Shown in pieces: positions 1-35,367 of a stretch of DNA of 35,367 nucleotides. The notes under the pieces were generated by a model, which saw only the letters and a program-made list of their open reading frames with translations, searched no databases and was not told the origin of the DNA. This DNA comes from Lachnospiraceae bacterium (GTDB taxonomy: Bacteria > Bacillota > Clostridia > Lachnospirales > Lachnospiraceae), in contig JALCKY010000011.1 of the NCBI GenBank assembly GCA_022647575.1, positions 1-35,367 on the forward strand. The letters are read 5' to 3'. Within the stretch, counting starts at the first letter, position 1; every line of letters starts with the position of its first letter. Both the position numbers and the translations under genes were made by a program.

Positions 1-23
1 TTTTACAGTCTGCAAAAGGCCGT

Positions 24-53
24 AAAAATTCCACCTCTTCGTATCGGGTGGAA
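24..53 (-). terminator. intrinsic terminator after the pfkA-to-cvpA operon
   Basis: Read on the minus strand, a 7-bp stem (TTCCACC at 53-47 pairing with GGTGGAA at 35-29, 11-base loop) is followed directly by five T residues (28-24). It lies about 125 bases past the stop of the CvpA-like gene, the last gene of the minus-strand operon. The stem is short, so efficiency is uncertain. Bases 54-176 show no gene. Confidence 0.6.
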
Positions 54-176
54 CCTTATAATAGCATCAGGGATTTACAAAGTCAAGGAAAATAAAAAGA
101 CTTTTTCAAAATATTTTCACCAGGATTTTCAGCAGCTTTTTCAACACCTGTTTCCGGTGCCGTCCGAAGCCTCTTT

Positions 177-890
177 TCAGAGAATGCTTTCCAGCACATC
201 CGGCAGAAACTGAACCAGAAGATTGTTTTCATACATCGGTTTGAGAAGCAGGCTTCCCCTGATCTGGGAAAGCAGTTCCGCCCCGGCCGGCGTCGACGGA
301 AACAGTCCGATCACGGCGAAGATGATCCATGTAATCAGAAAGCATTTGCAGATGCCGAGCAGAAGTCCGAGGATCCGGTTGACGGTTCCGAGAACCGGAA
401 GATTGGCGATCCGGTTCAGGATGGCTCCGATCACGGCAAGCACGATGGCAGACAGGATCAGCGTCAGCAGAAAGGCTGCCGCACCGATGGCTGCCGCCGC
501 CATCTTCTCCGAAAGATAGGATCGGACGGTGTCAGACTGAAGAAGCAGCCGGATGATTTCTTCATTTCCCTGAGCAAGATTTTCCTTCAGGTTATCCGGC
601 AGCGGAATGATGCTCAGCCAGGCATAGGCGGCAGCGTCCTGCGTCCCGTTTCCGCTGCTGTCCGCGTCGGCCTTGCTGTCGATGTAATTCCGGCACTGTT
701 CTTCCGTCCACTCGCTGACGGTTTCATTTTCGGAAAGCGCTTTCTGAACATAGGGAGTCAGACTGACCGTACAGATGATGACCAGGATCAGAAAAATCAT
801 GGAAAAGAAAGTCTTCACGAATCCGCGCCGGAAACTTCGGAACACAATCAGAGCCCAGAGAAGAAGGGCCGCAAGCGTCAGCCAGTTCAT
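177..890 (-). CDS. CvpA family membrane protein
   Basis: A 237-aa integral membrane protein of the CvpA (colicin V production) family. The N-terminus has a hydrophobic segment (about residues 5-17), an R-R-G-F turn typical of CvpA, and a second segment (about 28-46). A soluble loop follows, then two or more hydrophobic segments (about 133-160 and 172-197). Family members are linked to purine-locus expression, envelope stress and cell-wall processes; the molecular function is not settled. The ATG overlaps the stop of the upstream gene in an ATGA, so translation is probably coupled. It is the last gene before a terminator. The family call rests on topology and the RGF motif. Confidence 0.75.
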   Translation of the reverse strand: MNWLTLAALLLWALIVFRSFRRGFVKTFFSMIFLILVIICTVSLTPYVQKALSENETVSEWTEEQCRNYIDSKADADSSGNGTQDAAAYAWLSIIPLPDNLKENLAQGNEEIIRLLLQSDTVRSYLSEKMAAAAIGAAAFLLTLILSAIVLAVIGAILNRIANLPVLGTVNRILGLLLGICKCFLITWIIFAVIGLFPSTPAGAELLSQIRGSLLLKPMYENNLLVQFLPDVLESIL

Positions 891-2158
891 GTCAGTTTAA
901 TCGTCTCCGTCTTGGTATCCGTCACAATCAGATATCGGTTCCAGCCGATCTTCAGCACGTAGGAAATATCCCCTTCGTCCAGCACGCCTGTAAACCGCTC
1001 AATGCCGTTCAGGGAAAAGACCGAAAGCTCGGTGGAGTTGCTGAAAAGCACCTGGTCGTCGCAGACTTTGACGGTATCGTAAATGACATCGACATAGGTC
1101 GTGGTCAGCAGCGCGCCGTTGATGCTGTAGATCTTCATCACATATTTATGATCAGCATCCTTGCTTTTGAAAATGAAACCCAGATGGCGGGAATCGCAGA
1201 ACGTGCTGACGACCTCGTCTTCAAAGTCGACGCTCTGCGTCTTGGCAGGCGTGCTGCTTCCCTTGTAGATCGTAAAACCGTTTTCTCGGAAGGCGATGGC
1301 TTCTTCATTGCTGACGAAGGCGACCTCCGGAATAATCGTTCCGCTGTAATCTTCGGATGCCACCATATGGTCGGTCACATTCTTTCCGGCATCACCGAAA
1401 TTATAGAAGGCAAGATGCGTCCCGACCGAACCTTCATTGACGGTCAGATAAGAAACGGCAAGGAACAGTCCGTCATCGGAAAGCGCAATGTCGGTGGGAT
1501 ATCCCGGGCTTTTGATGGTGGAACTGGCGGCCGCGATTTCCGAACCGCCGGACGTGTAGTACTTGATCCAGGTCGTATCCGAATCGCTCAGGACGGCTGC
1601 CACATTTCCGGCAGAAGAGACTTTTGCCTTCACGATCGGGAAGTCCGTCTGGAAATTTCCGATCTGGCCTTTTGCGTCATAGACAAAAACATTCGTTCCG
1701 TTCCGGTCGTAAATGACCAGGGTGGAACCGCACGAATCAACCTGCGGGGATTCCATCGTAAAAGCCACGTTCCATACGGTATCGAGATTCTCCTTCAAAA
1801 GTGCCGCACCGTCGCTGGAGTAGCGGAGGATCCTGCCATTGACATACTGATATTCGGAAACATTGTCCGTCTTCTCAAGAGCGCTGACGACAGCATAGCC
1901 GTGATAGACGTGATGATCCGCCAGGGCCTTCACCAGAAAGACGAGCAGGACAAGGAGAACGACAAGAAAGGCCGTACGCACGTACATGGCCTTTCTGTGA
2001 TTGCGGATCCGCACCTTGTAAGCTTCGACATCGTTATCCGGAATCTCTTCCTGGAATTCGATTTTTTTGCGGAAAGCCGTCCATTTCTCTTTGAAGTTTT
2101 CCCTGAACCGTCTGAACCTGTCGCTCATGCTGCTGTCCGGACTGTGCCGATCTCTCAC
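887..2158 (-). CDS. DUF5711-like membrane-anchored beta-propeller-like protein
   Basis: A 423-aa protein with a charged cytoplasmic N-terminus, one transmembrane helix (about residues 59-78) and a long extracytoplasmic region. That region has repeated short beta-strand stretches ending in Asp/Ser-Asp turns (for example V-I-Y-D-R-N-G and I-A-L-S-D-D-G), as in WD40/PQQ-like propellers. It resembles the DUF5711 family of Clostridia; no enzymatic role is known. I take the GTG at 2158, which overlaps the recR stop in GTGA and has a GGAGG about 12 bases upstream. An alternative ATG (residue 11, at 2128) has a weaker ribosome site. Position between recR and cvpA suggests only co-expression. Confidence 0.65.
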   Translation of the reverse strand: MRDRHSPDSSMSDRFRRFRENFKEKWTAFRKKIEFQEEIPDNDVEAYKVRIRNHRKAMYVRTAFLVVLLVLLVFLVKALADHHVYHGYAVVSALEKTDNVSEYQYVNGRILRYSSDGAALLKENLDTVWNVAFTMESPQVDSCGSTLVIYDRNGTNVFVYDAKGQIGNFQTDFPIVKAKVSSAGNVAAVLSDSDTTWIKYYTSGGSEIAAASSTIKSPGYPTDIALSDDGLFLAVSYLTVNEGSVGTHLAFYNFGDAGKNVTDHMVASEDYSGTIIPEVAFVSNEEAIAFRENGFTIYKGSSTPAKTQSVDFEDEVVSTFCDSRHLGFIFKSKDADHKYVMKIYSINGALLTTTYVDVIYDTVKVCDDQVLFSNSTELSVFSLNGIERFTGVLDEGDISYVLKIGWNRYLIVTDTKTETIKLT

Positions 2159-2751
2159 AGTTCGGTTCTTCCCTCCAGTGCCCGAAGAAGCGTCACTTCA
2201 TCAATGTTTTCCAGATCTCCTCCGACCGGTACGCCGGATGCGATCCGCGTCACCTTGATTCCCGTGGGCTTGATCAGTTTGCTGATATACATTGCCGTCG
2301 TCTCTCCTTCGAGAGAGCTGTTCGTCGCAATGATGACTTCGTTCACGTCGCCTTCCAGGCGGCGGATCAGTTCCTTGATCCGGATGTCGTCCGGTCCGAT
2401 GCCGAGCATCGGGGAAATCGCCCCGTGCAGCACGTGATAGACGCCGCTGTATTTCCCGGTCTTCTCATAGGCTGCCAGGTCGCTCGGATTCTCGACGACC
2501 ATGATTGTCTTATGGTCGCGCCGTTCATTCGCGCAGATCGGACACAGGTCCGTGTCCGTCAGCGTGAAGCATTCCCTGCAGAAATGAATATTGTCTTTTG
2601 CGTCGATCAGCGCGTTTGCCAGCCGTTCCACTTTTTCCCTCGGCTGGCCGATGATATAAAAGGCAAGCCGCTGCGCGGATTTTGCTCCGATGCCGGGAAG
2701 CAGCGTCAGCTGTTCGATCAGCGCGCTGATGTGCCCGCTAAAATAGTCCAC
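2155..2751 (-). CDS. recR: recombination mediator RecR
   Basis: A 198-aa protein of standard RecR length. RecR works with RecO (and RecF) to load RecA on SSB-coated single-stranded gaps. Visible features are the N-terminal helix-hairpin-helix (L-P-G-I-G-A-K-S-A-Q-R, residues 18-28), the four-cysteine zinc finger (C58, C61, C70, C73) and a Toprim domain starting at about residue 80 with the V-V-E-N-P and S-L-E-G-E-T motifs. The start is a GTG at 2751 with GGGAGG eight bases upstream. It overlaps the end of ybaB by 14 bases, in the widely conserved dnaX-ybaB-recR order. Confidence 0.97.
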   Translation of the reverse strand: MDYFSGHISALIEQLTLLPGIGAKSAQRLAFYIIGQPREKVERLANALIDAKDNIHFCRECFTLTDTDLCPICANERRDHKTIMVVENPSDLAAYEKTGKYSGVYHVLHGAISPMLGIGPDDIRIKELIRRLEGDVNEVIIATNSSLEGETTAMYISKLIKPTGIKVTRIASGVPVGGDLENIDEVTLLRALEGRTEL

Positions 2752-3079
2752 CGCCGAGTCCTCCCGTTATGGAGTTGACCTGATTGGCCATTTCATCGTC
2801 GATTTTTTTCATGCATTCGTTAAAGGCAGCCACGATCAGATCCTGCAGGGTTTCCACATCCTCCGGATCCACCGCTTCTTTGGAAATGACGAGGCTTTTC
2901 ACATCCCTTTTCCCCGTCATGGAAATCGTCACGGCTCCGCCGCCTGCTGCGGCAGTGAATTCCTTCTCCTCCAGCGCCTTCTGATTCTCCTGCATCTTCT
3001 GCTGCATTCTCTGTGCCTGTTTCATCAGGTTGTTCATGTTTCCGGGCATTCCTCCCTGGAAGCCTCCGTGCTTAGCCAT
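2738..3079 (-). CDS. YbaB/EbfC nucleoid-associated protein
   Basis: A 113-aa small DNA-binding protein of the YbaB/EbfC family, which forms tweezer-like dimers on DNA. Typical features are a Gly/Met-rich N-terminus (G-G-M-P-G-N-M-N-N-L-M-K-Q-A), a Gln/Met coiled helix, the A-G-G-G-A-V strand, and the P-E-D-V-E-T-L-Q-D-L-I helix. The chosen ATG at 3079 has AGGAGG nine bases upstream. A longer frame exists but runs back through dnaX without family similarity. It overlaps the dnaX stop by 8 bases and recR by 14 bases, so the three genes are translationally linked. Confidence 0.93.
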   Translation of the reverse strand: MAKHGGFQGGMPGNMNNLMKQAQRMQQKMQENQKALEEKEFTAAAGGGAVTISMTGKRDVKSLVISKEAVDPEDVETLQDLIVAAFNECMKKIDDEMANQVNSITGGLGGGLF

Positions 3080-4700
3080 CCTCTTCATCCTCCTCTGTTT
3101 CTTCGACCGGCATGTTGATTCTGCTGATGCCTGTACTGACATCTCCGATCGGTGCAAGGTTCGATTTATGATCCTTGGCCAGATGGAGTTCCAAGTCGAC
3201 ATGCCTGCCGTAAGTCTGTTCTATGATCTTCATCAGCGTGTCCCGCACTTCATCCGTGACGCAGAGTTCGCCGAGAGTATCCGGTACTTCTACATAAAGC
3301 TTGTTTTCCGCCGTTGAGGAATCATACTGCGGAACTGCCTCCCCGAGGATCTGCCGGTGGAGACGGTCTTTCAGTCTTCCGGTAATGCTCAGCCAGTCGG
3401 CTTTGATTTTCCGGAGATCTTCCGGCGCCGCAAGAGGCACGACTTCGGGATCCGGTTTTGCTTCCGCCGTTTTTCCGGAAGAGGCAGCTGCTTTCTCCGG
3501 TTTCGCATCTTCCGGCGCTGCATAGACAGCCGGACGCCTGGAAAGTTCTTCGACTTTCATTTCCAGACGGCGGATGCGGTCCGAAACGGCATCTTCCGTC
3601 TTCTCCATCTGCGGACGCGTCATGCGGATGAGGGCAATCTCAACCAGCACGCGGCGGTTCGATGCATAGCGGATCTGATTGGAAAGATCCGACAGGATCC
3701 GGATGTAGCGCATCAGCGTTTCCGCCTCCGCTACGGAAGAAATCTCACGGAGCTCCTGCATCTTTTCTGCCGAAGCATCGACCGCGTCGACATCTCCGTC
3801 CTTCGACGTCTTTACCAGAAGCAGGTCCCTTAAATACCAGGTAAAGTCACTGACGAACTGACCGATTTCCCTGCCGTTCGCGATGAGTTCCTCATAAAGC
3901 CGGATGCTCGCAGCGGCATTTCCGCGGATGATTTCCTTCAGCAGTTCTCCGAAGACTTCCGTGTCGACTGCCCCGAGCACGTCGAGGACTTTTTCATAAG
4001 TCAGCTTCTGGCCCATGTAAAAAGCCATGCACTGATCCAGAAGGGAAAGGGCGTCCCTCATCGAGCCGTCCGCCGAACGGGCAATGTAGCGCAGGGCTTT
4101 GTCCTCCGCTTCTGCTCCTTCCGCCGCCGTCAGTTCCTTCATGCGGTCCGTGAGGACATCGATACCGATGCGGTGGAAATCGTACCGTTGGCACCGGCTC
4201 AGAATCGTCAGCGGAATTTTCGCGGCCTCCGTCGTCGCCAGAATAAAGATCACGTATTCCGGAGGCTCTTCCAGTGTCTTCAAAAGGGCGTTGAACGCGC
4301 CCGTGGAAAGCATATGGACTTCATCGATGATGTAAACCTTGTATTTCCCCTGCGTGGGACGGTACTGGACTTCGTCGATGATTTCCCGGATGTTGTCGAC
4401 GCCGTTGTTCGATGCCGCATCGATCTCGATGACATTCATCGACGTGCCGTTCTGGATCGACCGGCACATTTCGCACTCATTGCAGGGAGAGCCGTCGGAG
4501 GGATGCTCACAGTTCACGGCCTTTGCCAGAATCTTCGCGACAGAGGTTTTTCCGGTTCCCCTTGTGCCGCAGAAAAGATAGGCATGCTGCATGCGGCCTG
4601 CCTTGATCTGGTTTTTTAAAGTTGTCACAATATGGTCCTGTCCTTTGACTTCTTCGAAAGTCGTCGGACGGAACTTACGGTATAAGGCTACGTAAGACAT
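3072..4700 (-). CDS. dnaX: DNA polymerase III subunit gamma/tau
   Basis: A 542-aa clamp-loader subunit. It shows the AAA+ Walker A motif G-T-R-G-T-G-K-T (45-52), zinc-binding cysteines C64, C73, C76 and C79, Walker B D-E-V-H (126-129) and the sensor-1 S-R-C (168-170). Domain III follows, then an acidic and Lys/Ala-rich tau tail ending in Glu/Asp repeats. The start ATG has GGAGAG three bases upstream. It is 31 bases downstream of pfkA and overlaps ybaB. No convincing programmed gamma frameshift signal was identified by eye. Confidence 0.97.
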   Translation of the reverse strand: MSYVALYRKFRPTTFEEVKGQDHIVTTLKNQIKAGRMQHAYLFCGTRGTGKTSVAKILAKAVNCEHPSDGSPCNECEMCRSIQNGTSMNVIEIDAASNNGVDNIREIIDEVQYRPTQGKYKVYIIDEVHMLSTGAFNALLKTLEEPPEYVIFILATTEAAKIPLTILSRCQRYDFHRIGIDVLTDRMKELTAAEGAEAEDKALRYIARSADGSMRDALSLLDQCMAFYMGQKLTYEKVLDVLGAVDTEVFGELLKEIIRGNAAASIRLYEELIANGREIGQFVSDFTWYLRDLLLVKTSKDGDVDAVDASAEKMQELREISSVAEAETLMRYIRILSDLSNQIRYASNRRVLVEIALIRMTRPQMEKTEDAVSDRIRRLEMKVEELSRRPAVYAAPEDAKPEKAAASSGKTAEAKPDPEVVPLAAPEDLRKIKADWLSITGRLKDRLHRQILGEAVPQYDSSTAENKLYVEVPDTLGELCVTDEVRDTLMKIIEQTYGRHVDLELHLAKDHKSNLAPIGDVSTGISRINMPVEETEEDEEDG

Positions 4701-28381: not shown

Positions 28382-29590
28382 TTATGAGGACGCCTCCTTT
28401 CCGGCCAGGAAAGGCGTAAATTTTGCAAGGATCGAATCGCGGTCTTCGGCAGCTTTTTCGATGTCCAGATCACAGAGATTCGACATCGGATCCGCGCTGT
28501 AGCCTTCCGGAACGTTCTTGACCGCCCCGGTGCCGATGATTCCGTATTCGGTTGCATACTCTGCCATGGCTTCATCGGAAATCGCCCAGTCAAGGAAGGT
28601 ATAGGCTGCCGGGCTGATCGTGCTCTTGTTGACCAGGCAGTTCGCCTCGACATCCCAGCCGCAGCCTTCCGACGGGAATACGACCTGGACAGGATTTCCT
28701 TCCTGCAGAAGCTCCGCACAGCGGTATCCGAAGGAAATGCCGATTGCGCATTCGCCTGCAGCAGCCATCTTTGCCGGCTTGGAGCCCGATGTCGTGTAGC
28801 TCATGATGTTGTCATTCAGCTTCGTCAGGTAATCCCAGCCTTTCGTATCTCCCATGATCTGAAGGATTCCGTTGACCGTCAGCGTACCGGTACCGGAAGA
28901 AGTCGGATCCGGCATGACGATCTGTCCTTTGTACTCATCCTTCAGAAGATCCGCAAAGGATGTCGGAACATCCAGGCCGTCGGCCTTGCAGACATCCGTG
29001 TTGACCAGAAAAGCCGTCTCATAGGCATCATTTCCGACCCATTTTGCATCCGCATTCTTCGTATCCTTGAACTTGTCCAGAATGCGGTCGATGCCTTTCG
29101 GACTGTAGCCCTTGATCAGGTTGTATTTATCCAGCTGCAGCATGACCGAAGCGGAAGTTCCCCAGAAAACATCCGCAACCGGACTGTCCTTTTCCGCGAT
29201 GGCCTTTGCCACGATTGTTCCGGTCGAATCCCGTACGACGTTCAGCTTGATGTCCGGATATTCCTTGTAGAAAGATGCCAGATACTGCTGCACCTGGTCG
29301 TCCTCCAGAGCGGTGTATACGGTCAGCTCGCCGGATGTCGCAGAAGAATCCGTCCCCGATGACGCTGATGCGGCATTTCCCGATGCATCTGATGATGTCC
29401 CTGCCGATGTGGCAGAAGAAGCCGTTCCGGCAGTAGCAGATGCTGCCGCGGAGGCTGTCCCCGATGCCGCTGACGATGCTGCCGCGGAAGCCGTATCCGA
29501 TGAACGCACCGCGCATCCTCCCAGCATGGACGCCGTCATGGCAGCAATCACCGCTCCCGCTATCATCCCTGCATATTTCTTTTTTCTCAT
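28382..29590 (-). CDS. ABC transporter substrate-binding lipoprotein (2-aminoethylphosphonate/iron-type family)
   Basis: A 402-aa lipoprotein. The signal peptide ends in lipobox L-G-G-C (C26 lipidated). A 60-residue Ala/Ser/Thr linker (27-87) precedes the binding domain. That domain has E-L-T-V-Y-T-A-L-E-D-D, V-V-R-D-S-T-G, A-D-V-F-W-G, G-Q-I-V-M-P-D-P-T-S-S-G-T-G and G-I-S-F-G-Y-R. This pattern matches the proteins annotated as putative 2-aminoethylphosphonate binding proteins, which are distant relatives of ferric-iron binders. No phosphonate-degrading gene is in view, so the ligand is open. GGAGG precedes the ATG. It is the last gene of an ATPase-permease-binding protein set. Confidence 0.82.
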   Translation of the reverse strand: MRKKKYAGMIAGAVIAAMTASMLGGCAVRSSDTASAAASSAASGTASAAASATAGTASSATSAGTSSDASGNAASASSGTDSSATSGELTVYTALEDDQVQQYLASFYKEYPDIKLNVVRDSTGTIVAKAIAEKDSPVADVFWGTSASVMLQLDKYNLIKGYSPKGIDRILDKFKDTKNADAKWVGNDAYETAFLVNTDVCKADGLDVPTSFADLLKDEYKGQIVMPDPTSSGTGTLTVNGILQIMGDTKGWDYLTKLNDNIMSYTTSGSKPAKMAAAGECAIGISFGYRCAELLQEGNPVQVVFPSEGCGWDVEANCLVNKSTISPAAYTFLDWAISDEAMAEYATEYGIIGTGAVKNVPEGYSADPMSNLCDLDIEKAAEDRDSILAKFTPFLAGKEASS

Positions 29591-29640
29591 ACTCCTTACC
29601 TCCTTCATTTTGCAGCGTGCAACAACTGTGCCTTCCCTAT

Positions 29641-31380
29641 TCAATTCCCGGCGGTTTTCCAGGCATCCAGCTTCTTTGACATTTTCGCGTTCAGCAGTTC
29701 ATAAACTGTCCTGACGGCGATATTGATCAGAAGGATCAGGACGGACATCGCGGCCGCGGAAGCATAATCTCCATTGTCATCCATGTTGAGGATGGCGATG
29801 GCTGCCGGCTTGTTCTGCGGCGTATAAAGAAACACGATGGCGGAAACGGTCACCATGGAATTGACAAAGAAATACAGGAATATTTCCAGTACGGCATTAA
29901 GAGACATCGGCAGAGAAACCTTGAAGAAAACCTTCCAGAAAGGAATGCTCATGGAAGAGGCGGCATTCTCATATTCCCGGTCCAGCTTCTTCAGGGCTGT
30001 CACGCCTGTCACGAAGGTCACGGAAAACATATGGATGATGGTGCAGAACACCATGATGGCCATCGTTCCGTACAGTCCGCTGAAAGAATTCCCGATCTCG
30101 ATTCCCAGAAACGGAATCTGGATCCATTGCTTGTTGAAGAACATGATATAGCCGAGACCGAGCACCAGGCCCGGAAGAGCCATCGGCATCATGGAAAGGA
30201 AGCGGCAGAAGCTGCGCAGCTGCCGGAACGGTTTCGTTTTTTCAATGAGATAGGCAAACAGGAAAACAAGGACCGTCCCGAATGCCGCCGTTTCCAGCGA
30301 CAGGCGGAAGCTGTTCAGAAAGCTGACTGCGCCGCTGCCCACCAGCTTTTCACCGAAGTCAAAATGCCGGAGCGTGAACGACATGTCGTTCGGCCAGCGC
30401 TTGACGAAAGCGGACATCACGACCGACGCGATCATGGAAAACGTACAGAACAGCAGCGCGCTGCCGAAAACCTGATAAAAGACATCCCTTCCGGCAGAGC
30501 GGTCAACGCGGAGGGCTACCGCCTTCGAGGAAAGTTCATTCTGTTCATTCTTCTTTCTCAGTGCCAGATCGATCACGAAGGAAATGAAAGCCGGGATCGT
30601 CAGCACGACTCCTACGACAGCCCCCATGGACATCTTCTGCTGTCCGACGACCTGCCGGTAGATATCGGTTGCCAGGACGCTGTAATTCCCGCCGACCACT
30701 TCCGGCGCGCCGAAATCCGTGAAGCTCAGCGTGAAGCAGACGATGAAGCAGTTGATCAGTCCGTAGCGGATGGAGGGAAGCGTGATCCGGAAAAAAGTCC
30801 GGGCAGGGGATACGTCCATGACCCTGGCCGCTTCATAGAGACGGTTGTCGGCATTGTTGAGAGCGACGGCAAGAATCATGAAAGCCTGCGGAAAAGTATA
30901 GAAGATTTCAGCCATGATGATGCCGTATTTCCCGTACAGGCCGATATCGATTCCCAGCACGTTCGTCACGAATCCTGTTTTCCCGAAAAGATAGACAAGG
31001 GCCATGCCGTGAACCATCGTGGGAATGAAAAGCGGAAGCAGCGCCGCATAGCGGTAAAAGACTTTCCCCCTCATGCATGTCCGGGTAATGCCGTAGGCAT
31101 ACAGAAGACCCAGGGCTGTTGAAATGAATGCGGTCGAAAGGGAAACGGTCAGCGAGTGCACGATGGAGCCGGTCAGCAGCGGGTTGCTGAAATAGGAGCG
31201 GAAATTTTCCAGCCCTACCCAGCTGCCCAGGTCATCCGTAAAGACCTGCCCGAACATCATGACCATCGGCATCAGGAGAAAGATGACGAACCAGACAAGC
31301 ATCAGGAGGATCATCAGCCTCTGCAGAAAAACGTTCAGGTCAAACCGCTGTGAAATTGGTGTTTTCGTCCTTGTTTTCAA
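29641..31380 (-). CDS. ABC transporter permease, two fused membrane domains
   Basis: A 579-aa permease with about 12 helices in two halves, each with a binding-protein-dependent transport (EAA) loop. Examples are Y-E-A-A-R-V-M-D-V-S-P-A-R-T-F-F in the first half and Y-E-N-A-A-S-S-M-S-I-P-F-W-K-V-F-F in the second. This fused layout is found in 2-aminoethylphosphonate-type and ferric-iron importers. I place the start at a TTG (31380) with GAGGAAA upstream, overlapping the ATPase stop by 41 bases. The frame continues to 31434, but that part is antisense-like to ATPase coding. The start is uncertain. Confidence 0.85.
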   Translation of the reverse strand: MKTRTKTPISQRFDLNVFLQRLMILLMLVWFVIFLLMPMVMMFGQVFTDDLGSWVGLENFRSYFSNPLLTGSIVHSLTVSLSTAFISTALGLLYAYGITRTCMRGKVFYRYAALLPLFIPTMVHGMALVYLFGKTGFVTNVLGIDIGLYGKYGIIMAEIFYTFPQAFMILAVALNNADNRLYEAARVMDVSPARTFFRITLPSIRYGLINCFIVCFTLSFTDFGAPEVVGGNYSVLATDIYRQVVGQQKMSMGAVVGVVLTIPAFISFVIDLALRKKNEQNELSSKAVALRVDRSAGRDVFYQVFGSALLFCTFSMIASVVMSAFVKRWPNDMSFTLRHFDFGEKLVGSGAVSFLNSFRLSLETAAFGTVLVFLFAYLIEKTKPFRQLRSFCRFLSMMPMALPGLVLGLGYIMFFNKQWIQIPFLGIEIGNSFSGLYGTMAIMVFCTIIHMFSVTFVTGVTALKKLDREYENAASSMSIPFWKVFFKVSLPMSLNAVLEIFLYFFVNSMVTVSAIVFLYTPQNKPAAIAILNMDDNGDYASAAAMSVLILLINIAVRTVYELLNAKMSKKLDAWKTAGN

Positions 31381-31792
31381 AATAGTAAAGTTTTCCTCTC
31401 TTGAAACGGATTGAAATGATTTCGCCCCGGGCAATCGGTCTTCTCTCGTACTGCTCCGCCGGAAGATCGAAGGAAATGCAGTCTGTGCCGGCTGCTTCTT
31501 TTCCGCTGTCGTTCAGTGCTGCCAGAAGTCGGTAGCCGTAGCCGTGAAATTCCACATTTACCACTTCCGCGCGGAACGAATTCAGCGAACCGTCCTGCAC
31601 GATTTCGATATTCTCCGGCCGGCAGGCCTTGAGCTTCGTGCTGTTCTGCTCCAGTTCTTCCCTCAGGGTGCGGTCGATTCCGACATTTGCATTTCCGAGA
31701 ATATCCGAACGGAAGAAATTGATCGAACCGATGAAATCAGCCACGAAAGCTCCCTGCGGTTTTTCATAGACTTCAATCGGGGTCCCCTCCTG
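31340..31792 (-). pseudogene. ABC transporter ATPase, C-terminal fragment cut at a sequence junction
   Basis: About 150 residues, from Q-E-G-T-P-I-E-V-Y-E-K-P and F-V-A-D-F-I-G-S-I-N-F through the C-terminal TOBE-like domain to the stop at 31340. These are the end of the nucleotide-binding domain and the substrate-type regulatory domain. The Walker A, signature and Walker B motifs are missing because the sequence changes at about 31,793 into unrelated plus-strand coding. The fragment itself has no frameshift. The intact gene should be about 350 aa, first in the importer operon. Confidence 0.85.
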
Positions 31793-33555
31793 CGTATGAC
31801 AGCAACCTCGCCGTGTACGGCGACAGCACGACGTACACGAGTGACACATATCCGCACCTCTACGTTGGACTTGGGAAATGAAGGTATAGTGAAAAACAGC
31901 TGGTCGAACAGTGAGACCAGCAGCGGCTGGATGTGGAACGCAGCCACATCGACCCTCACCCTCAAAAACATGATCATCGTCGGTACGAATGAAACTGAAT
32001 CGGATAAAGGCTCTTTCGGAATTCAGGGAGGGCAAGACATCAGCATCGTCTATGAGGGCGTGAACGTCGTCTGCGGCGGCACGTCAGAAAGCGGCGACAG
32101 CTGCGGCATTATGGATGAAGCGAATGTTGCGGATGGGCTTTCGCTCAGCGGCGGCGGAACGCTTATCGCCCTCGGCAGACAGGCCGGCGGCAGCAGCTGC
32201 GGCATTCGATTGCTTACTGGACGATGTAGATACCGGGAGGCCTTAACGTCAGCGGCGGAAAGGTCATCGCCCTTGGCGGAGATGCCGGCGGAAGCAATGC
32301 ACCCTTCAGCTGCGGGCTGGAACGCATCAATAAAGTTTCAACTATTGACCGGCGGCGATGTTACCGCTGTTGGCGGAGCCGCAGCAGGCGACGGCAGCCT
32401 TAGCGCCGGCGCTGCAGCAGGCGCCGGAATCTCTGTGAGCAGCGGACAGCTTGTTGCCGTGGGCGGGTCATGCCTCCGGCACAGGCAGCGTCAGCGCGGG
32501 CGCTTGCTCCTACGGTACGACAACATTTTCCGGCGAGCGCAAATGTCGTCGCCGCGGGCGACGGCTACGGCATTGCCACATATTTGGCCGGTATAACTCC
32601 CGCCGATTTCCAGCTTGGCACAGCCGCTGCGGATACCGTGACCCTCACCGCCATGGGCGGCGACCGGCGCGGCAAACGGTAAAGGAACCACCACGGTTTC
32701 CGGACAAGGTCGTTCGCCTGCGACGGCGGCGTCCGAACGACCGCCGGCTCCGCCGTGCGCTTCCGCCTGGGCGATCCCGATCATCGCCGTGGCGCATGAC
32801 GGAACCGTTTCAGGCTACGGCGACTTCGCCGACGGCTGGAACGCGGCGGTCGGCCTTGATACAAGCACAAATCGACCGCCGCCGTCAAGCTCTTCGCCGA
32901 CTGGACGGCGGACCACGGACAACGATCATTCGGCACCAGCTTCGGCAGCGGCGTCGGATTTTATGACGGAACGACTGAAAACAGTGAGGGCGCCGTCTGC
33001 GTTCCTGTAGGCAAACATATTACCCTCGACCTGAACGGCTTTACCATCGACCGCAATCTGAATGAGCCCTGCAGTGACTACGGCGGATGGGTCATCGCCA
33101 ATCTCGGCACCCTGAGCATATGTGACAGCGGCACCGGCGGCACCATTACCGGCGGCTATACGGGACGCAACTTGTCCGACAGCAAGAACGGCGGCGGCAT
33201 CTATAACGCGGGTACCCTTACGCTCTCGGGCGGCACTATTACCAAAAACGCCGACGGCGAGAAGGGCGGCGGCGTTTACAACGCGGAGAATGCATCCTTC
33301 ACCATGACCGGCGGTAAGATCAGCGCGAATCTCGCCGCGACGGGTGAGGGCGGCTACACCTGCGGCGGCGGCGTTTACAACGACGGGACCTTCACCATGA
33401 CCGGCGGCGAGATCAGCGGCAACTACTCCTGCGACACCGCAAACGAAGACGGCGGCGGCGTGTATAACGCCGGGACCTTCACGGTCGGCGGCACGGCGAA
33501 GATCACCGGCAACGTCGCCAAGGCAGTCTACGATTACAGAACAAATTCCGCCTCC
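31793..33555 (+). pseudogene. frameshifted internal fragment of a surface beta-helix/repeat protein
   Basis: Plus-strand coding without start or stop, spread over several frames. The first part (about 31,860-32,205) has W-M-W-N-A-A-T-S-T-L-T-L-K-N and I-V-Y-E-G-V-N-V-V, then G-G-G-T-L-I-A-L-G units and V-T-A-V-G-G repeats, as in gut-anaerobe surface proteins. From about 32,940 to 33,520 one frame carries H-I-T-L-D-L-N-G-F-T-I and repeated G-G-G-V-Y-N-A-G-T-F-T-M-T-G-G units of a right-handed beta-helix. At least five frame changes occur. Codon choice is heavier in GGC than in the flanking genes. Both ends break into other genes. Confidence 0.75.
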
Positions 33556-33831
33556 GGTCAGGACGGAATGCGTGCTTGCTTTCCCTTCACGTTTATTGAA
33601 GCCGCCGGGGAATTTTCCCCACGGCATACATCTTCTCTTCAAATTCAACGGAAAGCGGGAAGAAATCAATTCCTTCGCTGGGTTCCTTCGATGCTGTTGC
33701 AGTAGAAAGGACCAGCGTGTCCGCCGTAATGCATGAAGCAGCAGCCATTGGCCTGTTTGCCCACGCGTCCGATATCGACGGAAAGAGTCCCTTCCACCAA
33801 GTTCCATGGAATACGTTTTGTAATTTGCCAT
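33556..33831 (-). pseudogene. pnp: polyribonucleotide nucleotidyltransferase, N-terminal fragment with frameshifts
   Basis: The start [13 protein letters not shown] (ATG at 33831, AAGGGTGG upstream), then in shifted frames [37 protein letters not shown] and [11 protein letters not shown], ending near V-L-T. This is the first RNase PH domain of PNPase. About 92 of about 700 residues remain, with roughly three single-base shifts, before the join to the surface-protein fragment. Its place downstream of rpsO is the conserved one. Confidence 0.88.
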
Positions 33832-33888
33832 TTTCCACCCTTCTGCCCGATTGGGCGATCCTTAGTAAAAATAGATACCGTTACACCC

Positions 33889-33916
33889 AAAAAATGGGAC
33901 GGTCATCCCGTCCCAT
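33889..33916 (-). terminator. terminator between rpsO and pnp
   Basis: On the minus strand a 9-bp stem ATGGGACGG/CCGTCCCAT (33916-33908 with 33902-33894) followed by six T (33894-33889). It lies ten bases past the reconstructed rpsO stop, a usual site for attenuation of pnp. Confidence 0.8.
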
Positions 33917-33925
33917 CTTTCTTCA

Positions 33926-34193
33926 TTATTTACGAAGCCCTAACTTTTCAATCAGAGAACGATAACGCTCGATGTCCTTGCCTTTCAGATATCCGAGAAG
34001 ATTTCTTCTCTGTCCGACCATCTTCAGAAGTCCTCTTCTGGAATGATGATCCTTCGGGATGATCCTTCAGATGCGCTGTCAGCTCATTGATTCGCTCCGT
34101 GAGTACGGCTACCTGAACTTCCGGTGATCCTGTATCGCCTTCTGTCCTGGCGTACTCTTTCATAATCTGCTGCTTTAATTCTTTCGTAATCAT
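33926..34193 (-). CDS. rpsO: 30S ribosomal protein S15, frameshifted in this sequence
   Basis: The start M-I-T-K-E-L-K-Q and [16 protein letters not shown] are intact, with AAAGGAGG before the ATG. After H-L-K-D-H-P the frame is off by one. Removing one C from the CCC near 34,057 restores [24 protein letters not shown] and the usual end L-G-L-R-K, with stop at 33926-33928. S15 binds 16S rRNA early in assembly. A truncated S15 in a living cell is unlikely, so I read the shift as a sequence error. Confidence 0.9.
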
Positions 34194-34295
34194 TTTAATT
34201 CCTCCTTTGGAATCTGTCTGCCTTCGCCTGTCATTAAGAGCCGGCCCGGAGAAGCCTGGGTTCCGAATGAAGGTAACGGACTGTGCAACCTAGAA

Positions 34296-34326
34296 AGTAT
34301 AGCATACCCCTTCCTTGAGAAGTCAA
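34296..34326 (-). promoter_or_regulatory. rpsO promoter with about 95-base leader
   Basis: Minus strand TTGACT (34326-34321), a 19-base spacer and TATACT (34301-34296) with extended TGC. The -35 box lies in the small palindrome CCTTGA-N4-TCAAGG. Transcription from about 34289 leaves a leader of about 95 bases that may hold an S15 autoregulatory structure, but I cannot show a fold. Confidence 0.55.
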
Positions 34327-34347
34327 GGAAAAAGGCCCTTCCGTTCT

Positions 34348-35212
34348 TCTCATCCTTCTTCAGCTGAATTTTCAGCTCTTCGACGGACGGAAATTTCTTT
34401 TCCCGGCGCAGATGGCTAATATCCGGACCTCTTCTTCCTCGCCGTAGAGGTCTCGCTGCAGTCAAAAAGGAACGTCTCGACGCCGACGAACTGTCCGTCG
34501 ACCGTCGGCTTGGTTCCGATGTCGGTCCAGCCCCTGATAGATTCTTTTCCCGATCCTCGTTTCCGAAGCATACACGCCGTTCGGCCGGCAGAAGCTTCGT
34601 CCTTCTCCGGGATGATGTTCGTCGTCGGCACGCCCCAGCGTCCTTCCGATGTGGTTGCCGTGCACGATCTCGCGCGTCACGAAGAAATCGTATCCCAGAA
34701 GTTCATTGACCTTCTCCATTTCTCCCTTTGCCAAATGATTCCGGATCCGGCTGCTGCTGATTTCGCCCTCCTCATCGCAGACCACCGGCACGACCTTCAC
34801 GGTGAAGCCGTACTGCTTTCCGAGCTTCCTCAGCGTATCGGCATTTTCCTTCCGCTCATATCCGAAACGGAAATTCGGTCCGACCACGACTTCTTCGGCG
34901 TGCATTTTTCTCCGAAAGGATATCCCGGACGAATGCTTCCGGGCTCATCGTAATGATCTTCGGCGTAACGGACATTCCACCATCATGGAAATGCCCATCT
35001 TCTCCAGCATCATCCGCGCGTTCGCGCTTCGTCAGAAGCGTCATCGGGGCGATGTCGAAGGCGAAGACAGCCGGAATTCTTTCCGTCCGGCATCCCTTCA
35101 CGGTCTTTTCAATCAGTTTCCGGTGTCCGCGGTGAAGCCCGTCGAATTTTCCGAGCGTGACTGCCGTCGGCTTTTCACTGTTCACTTTATCAAGTTCTTT
35201 AATCAGGATCAT
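34348..35212 (-). pseudogene. ribF: bifunctional riboflavin kinase/FAD synthetase, multiply frameshifted
   Basis: Reading across frames gives RibF in order: V-T-L-G-K-F-D-G-L-H-R-G-H (FMN adenylyltransferase HxGH), F-D-I-A-P-M-T-L-L-T, S-P-E-A-F-V-R-D-I-L, V-V-V-G-P-N-F-R-F-G, I-S-S-S-R-I-R, G-R-T-L-G then P-T-T-N-I-I-P (kinase), N-G-V-Y-A, D-I-G-T-K-P-T-V-D and F-P-S-V-E-E-L-K-I-Q-L. Shifts occur near 35,017, 34,966, 34,906, 34,632, 34,592, 34,530 and 34,445. All motifs survive, so the underlying gene is probably intact and the sequence faulty. The start overlaps truB by 14 bases. The 3' end is uncertain. Confidence 0.88.
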
Positions 35213-35367
35213 AGAAGTTTTTCACCAGACGAACCATTCCGTTATTTTTATCAAAGCGATAGATTCCGATGATTTTCCCGCGGAAGTATGTACCCGGACT
35301 TCCTGAAGATCCGGTCTTCCCGTTTCTCTTCCGGAATCTCAAAGTCATTTCCGTTGATCAGTCTATG
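35199..35367 (-). CDS. truB: tRNA pseudouridine(55) synthase TruB, C-terminal end (partial, frameshifted)
   Basis: The window edge cuts the gene. Across frames it reads L-I-N-G-N-D-F, then R-P-D-L-Q-E-V-R-V-H-T-S-A-G-K, then I-I-G-I-Y-R-F-D-K and V-R-L-V-K-N-F-Y-D-P-D with TAA at 35201-35199. This fits the C-terminal PUA-like end of TruB. One shift lies at the A-run near 35,275 and another upstream. The conserved truB-ribF-rpsO-pnp order supports the call. Confidence 0.75.

What the first reader, a model, noticed from the sequence alone, without database searches (positions are those of the whole stretch)
31793..35367. Abrupt chimeric and low-accuracy zone to the right of 31,793
The ABC ATPase is cut between the codons for Gln and the preceding residue. 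Unrelated plus-strand coding follows, then a truncated pnp. From this point to the end, single-base frameshifts occur in the surface protein, pnp, rpsO, ribF (about seven) and truB (at least two). Several fall at homopolymers (CCC in rpsO, an A-run in truB). Left of 31,793 almost every gene is intact over 31.7 kb. Simultaneous decay of rpsO, ribF and pnp with all motifs preserved is not credible, so an assembly join plus poor base accuracy is the best reading.
Basis: partly seen in the sequence, partly recalled or inferred. Interest (0 to 1): 0.75.

Follow-up and report, generated by a model that had tools for sequence, protein, structure and literature searches.

The report
Chimeric, error-rich contig end
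The last 3.6 kb of this bacterial contig is most likely not a real gene arrangement but two error-rich copies of DNA from elsewhere in the same draft genome, stuck onto the contig end, so its broken genes should not be read as biology.

Summary
The window is one whole contig (C11) of an 11-contig, 3.03-Mb draft genome. It looks sound up to 31,792, where a PhnT2-like ATPase gene of a 2-aminoethylphosphonate transporter is cut near profile position 215 of 353. The rest is two foreign pieces end to end. Window ~31,793-33,557 is an 89% copy of part of a surface-type gene on contig C2, reverse strand; 33,557-35,367 is a 97% copy of pnp(start)-rpsO-ribF-truB(end) on contig C9. On C9, pnp and rpsO are intact and ribF has one break. 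Away from the joint, 17 of 19 insertions against C9 are single bases beside the same base; indels against C2 mostly are not. Both joins cut genes and are nearly blunt. No unpaired N-terminal half of the ATPase was found. No close copy of either piece occurs in 41 other genus genomes, so both come from this species. A chimeric, uncorrected long read at the contig end explains this best. A mild third-position and synonymous excess suggests some differences are strain variation. Reads were unavailable, so coverage is untested.

The parts
28382..29644 (-). Substrate-binding lipoprotein, PhnS2-like; sound part of the contig
   Evidence: TIGR03261 E=4.4e-115, 384.3 bits, just under the cut-off of 392.75; frame continuous at its N-terminal end
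29641..31434 (-). 2-aminoethylphosphonate ABC transporter permease PhnU2; sound part of the contig
   Evidence: TIGR03262 E=3.5e-199, 663 bits, above the cut-off 593.25
31340..31792 (-). C-terminal part of a PhnT2-like ATPase, cut near profile position 215 of 353
   Evidence: complete in relatives L025 and L026
31793..31793 (.). Join 1, C11 to C2-like piece, at most about 2-4 bases of shared sequence, no insert seen
31793..33557 (+).
   Evidence: 89% identity, blast 109 mismatches and 34 gap openings over 31,802-33,557; no further long match in the genome
33557..33557 (.). Join 2, C2-like piece to C9-like piece, about 1 base shared
33557..35367 (-). Error-rich copy of pnp start, rpsO, ribF and truB end, homologous to C9:23,095-24,893 (genes on the minus strand)

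Best explanation
An artefact of sequencing and assembly. Most likely one chimeric long read, made of three unrelated DNA fragments of this species, was left as the overhanging end of contig C11: the phosphonate-transporter region, a 1.76-kb internal piece of a surface-type gene, and at least 1.81 kb of the pnp-rpsO-ribF-truB region. Because few or no other reads cover the overhang, its raw errors were not corrected. Shown: the two source places, the mid-gene nearly blunt joins, the excess of indels, the position at the contig end and the lack of a found continuation. Inferred: that reads were the cause, that it was a single read, and that the fragments were fused in library preparation or sequencing. 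The confidence is for an artefact of either kind, the second rival included.
For: The window is the whole contig C11. The two tail pieces map to C2 and C9 of the same assembly, while 1-3000 has no second copy and 29,600-31,900 none except its C2-like last part. On C9 pnp and rpsO are intact and ribF has one break. Against C9, leaving out one 2-base insertion and one 2-base deletion at the join, 17 of 19 insertions and 7 of 7 deletions are single bases beside the same base. Both joins lie inside genes and are nearly blunt. ATPase: 0 of 84 PhnT2-profile matches in the genome reach the cut-off (the same search also rings below cut-off in all 14 control genomes, so it recognises ABC ATPases in general). 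The two best other matches are full-length 336- and 357-aa genes beside permease-like genes of their own. Of 22 contig ends only C11's right end has an ATPase match. In relatives L025 and L026 the ATPase is complete with other genes upstream. Among 41 other genus genomes nothing near 97% or 89% was found over long stretches. Chimeric reads are a stated source of error in long-read metagenome assembly (PMC12424758, PMC8862349; passages).
Against: No raw reads, so depth is unknown. No match to a nanopore or a PacBio adapter core (both typed from recall) with up to 3 mismatches. The two pieces differ in pattern: against C2 only 6 of 23 single-base insertions and 1 of 16 single-base deletions lie beside the same base, so homopolymer error does not describe that piece. 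C2 is itself frame-broken there, so poor accuracy is not unique to the tail. Substitutions, 29 against C9 and 100 against C2, outnumber insertions. They lean to third codon positions, 13 of 25 and 32 of 67 of those in assignable frames (p=0.04 and 0.01), and to synonymous changes, 10 of 25 and 28 of 67 (p=0.03 and 0.003). So part of the divergence looks natural.
Confidence: 0.95

Rival explanations
1. A real rearrangement in a minor strain: a genuine duplication placed an internal surface-type gene piece and a pnp-rpsO-ribF piece next to the phosphonate transporter, and the copies decayed.
For: Third-position and synonymous excess, and 21-, 3- and 3-base indels in the assignable parts of the C2-like piece, point to a somewhat diverged source.
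Against: Two unrelated donors, nearly blunt mid-gene joins, no mobile element noticed at the joins (not searched with profiles), homopolymer-type indels in the C9-like piece, position at the contig end, and a cut ATPase without its other half. None of 41 other genus genomes has a close long copy of either piece; the junctions themselves were not searched for there.
Confidence: 0.03
2. A variant inside the artefact class (its odds are part of the 0.95): the joins were made by the assembler or scaffolder between thinly covered contigs of a second strain, with no single chimeric read.
For: Strain-like part of the divergence. Draft genome with a 3.74% contamination estimate.
Against: No run of N at the joins, and blastn at E 1e-5 found no repeat shared at the joins between C11, the C2 stretch and the C9 stretch that could mislead an assembler.
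Confidence: 0.25
3. Natural pseudogene decay of a tandem locus.
For: Frames are broken in the pnp start, rpsO, ribF and the surface-type piece.
Against: The C9 copies of the same genes are intact or nearly so, the pnp copy is cut at codon ~91, and the C9-like indels are mostly single bases beside the same base.
Confidence: 0.01

Closest known systems
Chimeric long reads left in metagenome assemblies (passages in PMC12424758 and PMC8862349; ligation chimeras in PMC13141652, title and start of abstract in a listing only)
   Same: Separate genomic segments stitched together; described as an error source in long-read metagenome contigs
   Different: All three segments here appear to come from one species; those passages speak of segments from distinct genomes or viruses
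2-aminoethylphosphonate ABC transporter PhnS2-PhnT2-PhnU2 (TIGR03261, TIGR03265, TIGR03262)
   Same: The gene cluster that is cut; permease above its cut-off, binding protein just under it
   Different: The ATPase lacks its first ~214 profile positions because the contig changes source

Membership tests
Chimeric read / misassembled contig end | Pieces map to separate places in the same or another genome | tested here: met
   C2:142,863-144,613 minus and C9:23,095-24,893 plus
Chimeric read / misassembled contig end | Abrupt joins inside genes without shared repeat | tested here: met
   mobile elements were looked for by eye only
Chimeric read / misassembled contig end | Raw-read-like errors, indels in homopolymers | tested here: inconclusive
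   Met for the C9-like piece (17 of 19 insertions, 7 of 7 deletions away from the join), not for the C2-like piece (6 of 23 and 1 of 16 single-base events); strain-like substitutions mixed in
Chimeric read / misassembled contig end | Leftover adapter at the join (helpful, not required; recalled) | tested here: not met
   0 matches for two adapter cores typed from recall
Chimeric read / misassembled contig end | Coverage drop and no spanning reads | not testable with these tools
   no raw reads held
Real insertion or duplication | Target-site repeat or a comparable copy in relatives | tested here: not met
   nearly blunt joins; 41 other genus genomes lack a close long copy; upstream neighbours differ in L025 and L026
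Real insertion or duplication | Mobile element at the joins | not tested
   none noticed by eye; no profile search made
PhnT2 ATPase | Full-length match to TIGR03265 above cut-off | tested here: not met
   69 bits against cut-off 457.7, profile 215-352 only, a fragment; no genome match over cut-off

The most novel reading that the evidence does not exclude
A real, rare rearranged molecule from a sub-strain of this species, in which two distant gene fragments became joined beside the phosphonate transporter by repair almost without shared sequence, sampled by one read.
Probability: 0.03. Interest if true: 0.2.

Novelty: not a real feature. Interest (0 to 1): 0.07.

Why it matters
It is a quality-control finding. 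The tail adds false second copies of pnp, rpsO, ribF and truB fragments, which could raise contamination estimates and be misread as gene decay, and it hides that the phosphonate transporter ATPase is simply missing its other half. It also shows that a chimeric contig end can be spotted from frame breaks in raw sequence alone.

Tried and rejected
Considered and rejected: natural decay (C9 copies intact or nearly so); another species as the source (41 other genus genomes have nothing near 97% over a long stretch); a repeat causing a wrong join (none shared at the joins among the compared stretches); an ATPase N-terminal half elsewhere in the assembly. The C3-C6 overlap between contig ends is a dispersed repeat, unrelated. 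The codon-model scan was poor at counting breaks in the tail, so counts come from alignment to C9. I first called the differences from C9 dominated by homopolymer insertions; a recount shows more substitutions (29) than insertions, and the C2-like piece lacks the homopolymer pattern. The exact junctions were not searched for in public collections; the one genome-contig scan went to the permease. Paper searches gave background, 40 gave ligation chimeras.

Full report
What the window is. The window is the entire contig C11 (35,367 bases) of a draft genome of 3,026,614 bases in 11 contigs, estimated 94.3% complete and 3.74% contaminated. One scan found seven public loci that encode relatives of its permease; four record titles say Lachnospiraceae, the others Acetatifactor, Roseburia and Oscillospiraceae, and all seven are MAG or uncultured records. 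The organism itself is not named by any search.

The sound part. Left of 31,793 a codon-model scan made 15 frame-switch calls. By hand against the ORF list, 14 sit in the overlap, or within 30 bases, of two neighbouring same-strand ORFs, and the one at 29,334 is in an Ala/Ser-rich linker of a lipoprotein whose frame is continuous. The scan is insensitive, as its poor showing in the tail demonstrates, so a few breaks on the left could be missed. The last genes are a PhnS2-like binding protein (TIGR03261, 384 bits, slightly under the cut-off 392.75), a PhnU2 permease (TIGR03262, above cut-off) and a PhnT2 ATPase fragment that matches only profile positions 215-352 of 353. In relatives L025 and L026 the ATPase is complete, 365 and 388 aa; the other five loci were not examined for this.

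The two foreign pieces. Searching the genome with its own tail found both sources. Window 31,802-33,557 matches C2:142,863-144,613 on the reverse strand at 89%, and window 33,557-35,367 matches C9:23,095-24,893 at 97%. Inspection of the alignment moves the first border to about 31,793; two ATPase searches let the ATPase run on to 31,795 and 31,807, so it is good to a few codons. Both borders are nearly blunt and cut genes in the middle: the ATPase, the surface-type gene and pnp (codon ~91 of 731). The first 3 kb of the contig have no second copy.

Error pattern. Against C9 the alignment has 29 substitutions, 20 insertion events and 8 deletion events; one 2-base insertion and one 2-base deletion belong to the edge of the join. 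Of the remaining 19 insertions 17, and of the 7 deletions 7, are single bases beside the same base. Blast gives 33 mismatches and 23 gap openings. Against C2 there are 100 substitutions, 31 insertion and 19 deletion events, and here only 6 of 23 single-base insertions and 1 of 16 single-base deletions lie beside the same base: the two pieces do not share one error pattern. On C9, pnp is an intact 731-aa gene, rpsO is intact (88 aa) and ribF has one break near codon 45. In the tail, gap columns against C9 number 16 in ribF, 3 in the pnp start, 1 in rpsO, 3 in the truB end and 3 between genes.

Not only noise. In frames that could be assigned, substitutions lean to third codon positions (13 of 25 against C9, p=0.04; 32 of 67 against C2, p=0.01) and to synonymous changes (10 of 25, p=0.03; 28 of 67, p=0.003). 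These tests are not corrected for their number. One of six landmark stretches of the C2 gene was not placed by the script, so the C2 counts cover 1,026 bases of the 1,751-base C2 match. With 21-, 3- and 3-base indels in those parts, this suggests that the tail came from a slightly different strain of the species, or that C2 and C9 carry another allele. The C2 copy is also frame-broken, so it is an imperfect reference.

Where the real continuation is. A 365-aa ATPase of a relative gave 77 matches in the genome and the PhnT2 profile 84, none over the cut-off (the profile also rings, below cut-off, in 14 of 14 control genomes, so it sees ABC ATPases in general). The two best other matches, on C2 (47% identical over residues 6-313 and 52% over 7-248), are full-length 357- and 336-aa genes, each beside a permease-like gene. 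The C11 fragment is the only match that starts after residue 137. Among 22 contig ends of about 6 kb only C11's right end gave an ATPase match, and none matched the regulator, aminotransferase or MgtC-like neighbours of the relative. The true continuation was therefore probably not assembled or not binned.

Other species. Of 42 genus genomes (own included), 41 have a match to the pnp-rpsO-ribF piece, as expected for conserved genes, but outside G000 the matches over 200 bases are about 63-80% identical. For the surface-type piece 6 of 42 match, own included, the other five only over 26-71 bases. In the 21-genome set the 31,000-31,800 stretch matched only the own genome. So the tail is from this species rather than from any genus neighbour held here.

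Verdict. A chimeric, uncorrected read end is the simplest explanation. Chimeric reads are a described source of errors in long-read metagenome assembly (PMC12424758 and PMC8862349, passages seen; PMC13141652, start of abstract in a listing). The sequencing technology of this genome is not known to me; that long reads were used is inferred. No adapter remains were found at the joins, which neither supports nor excludes the reading.

Noticed in passing
L017 (C6:1-1412), also C2:420,853-422,264, C3:24,410-25,817, C3:369,878-371,280, and part at C1:590,171-591,092: A 1.4-kb repeat, 99-100% identical, lies at four places with a 922-base part at a fifth, and forms the left end of contig C6; perhaps an insertion sequence that broke the assembly (not tested).
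   Followed up: partly
C2:142,863-144,613 (L009) and C9 near 24.6 kb and right of 24.9 kb (L010): The C2 surface-type gene is itself frame-broken, and C9 has one break in ribF and breaks in truB, so residual indels exist elsewhere in the draft.
   Followed up: partly
L025:1352-2728, 2729-3436 and 3853-4590; L026:1276-1971, 1968-3371 and 3802-4641: In relatives the transporter lies near an aminotransferase-like, an MgtC-like and a GntR-type regulator gene (names recalled, not searched); the L025 versions matched none of the 22 contig ends of G000.
   Followed up: partly
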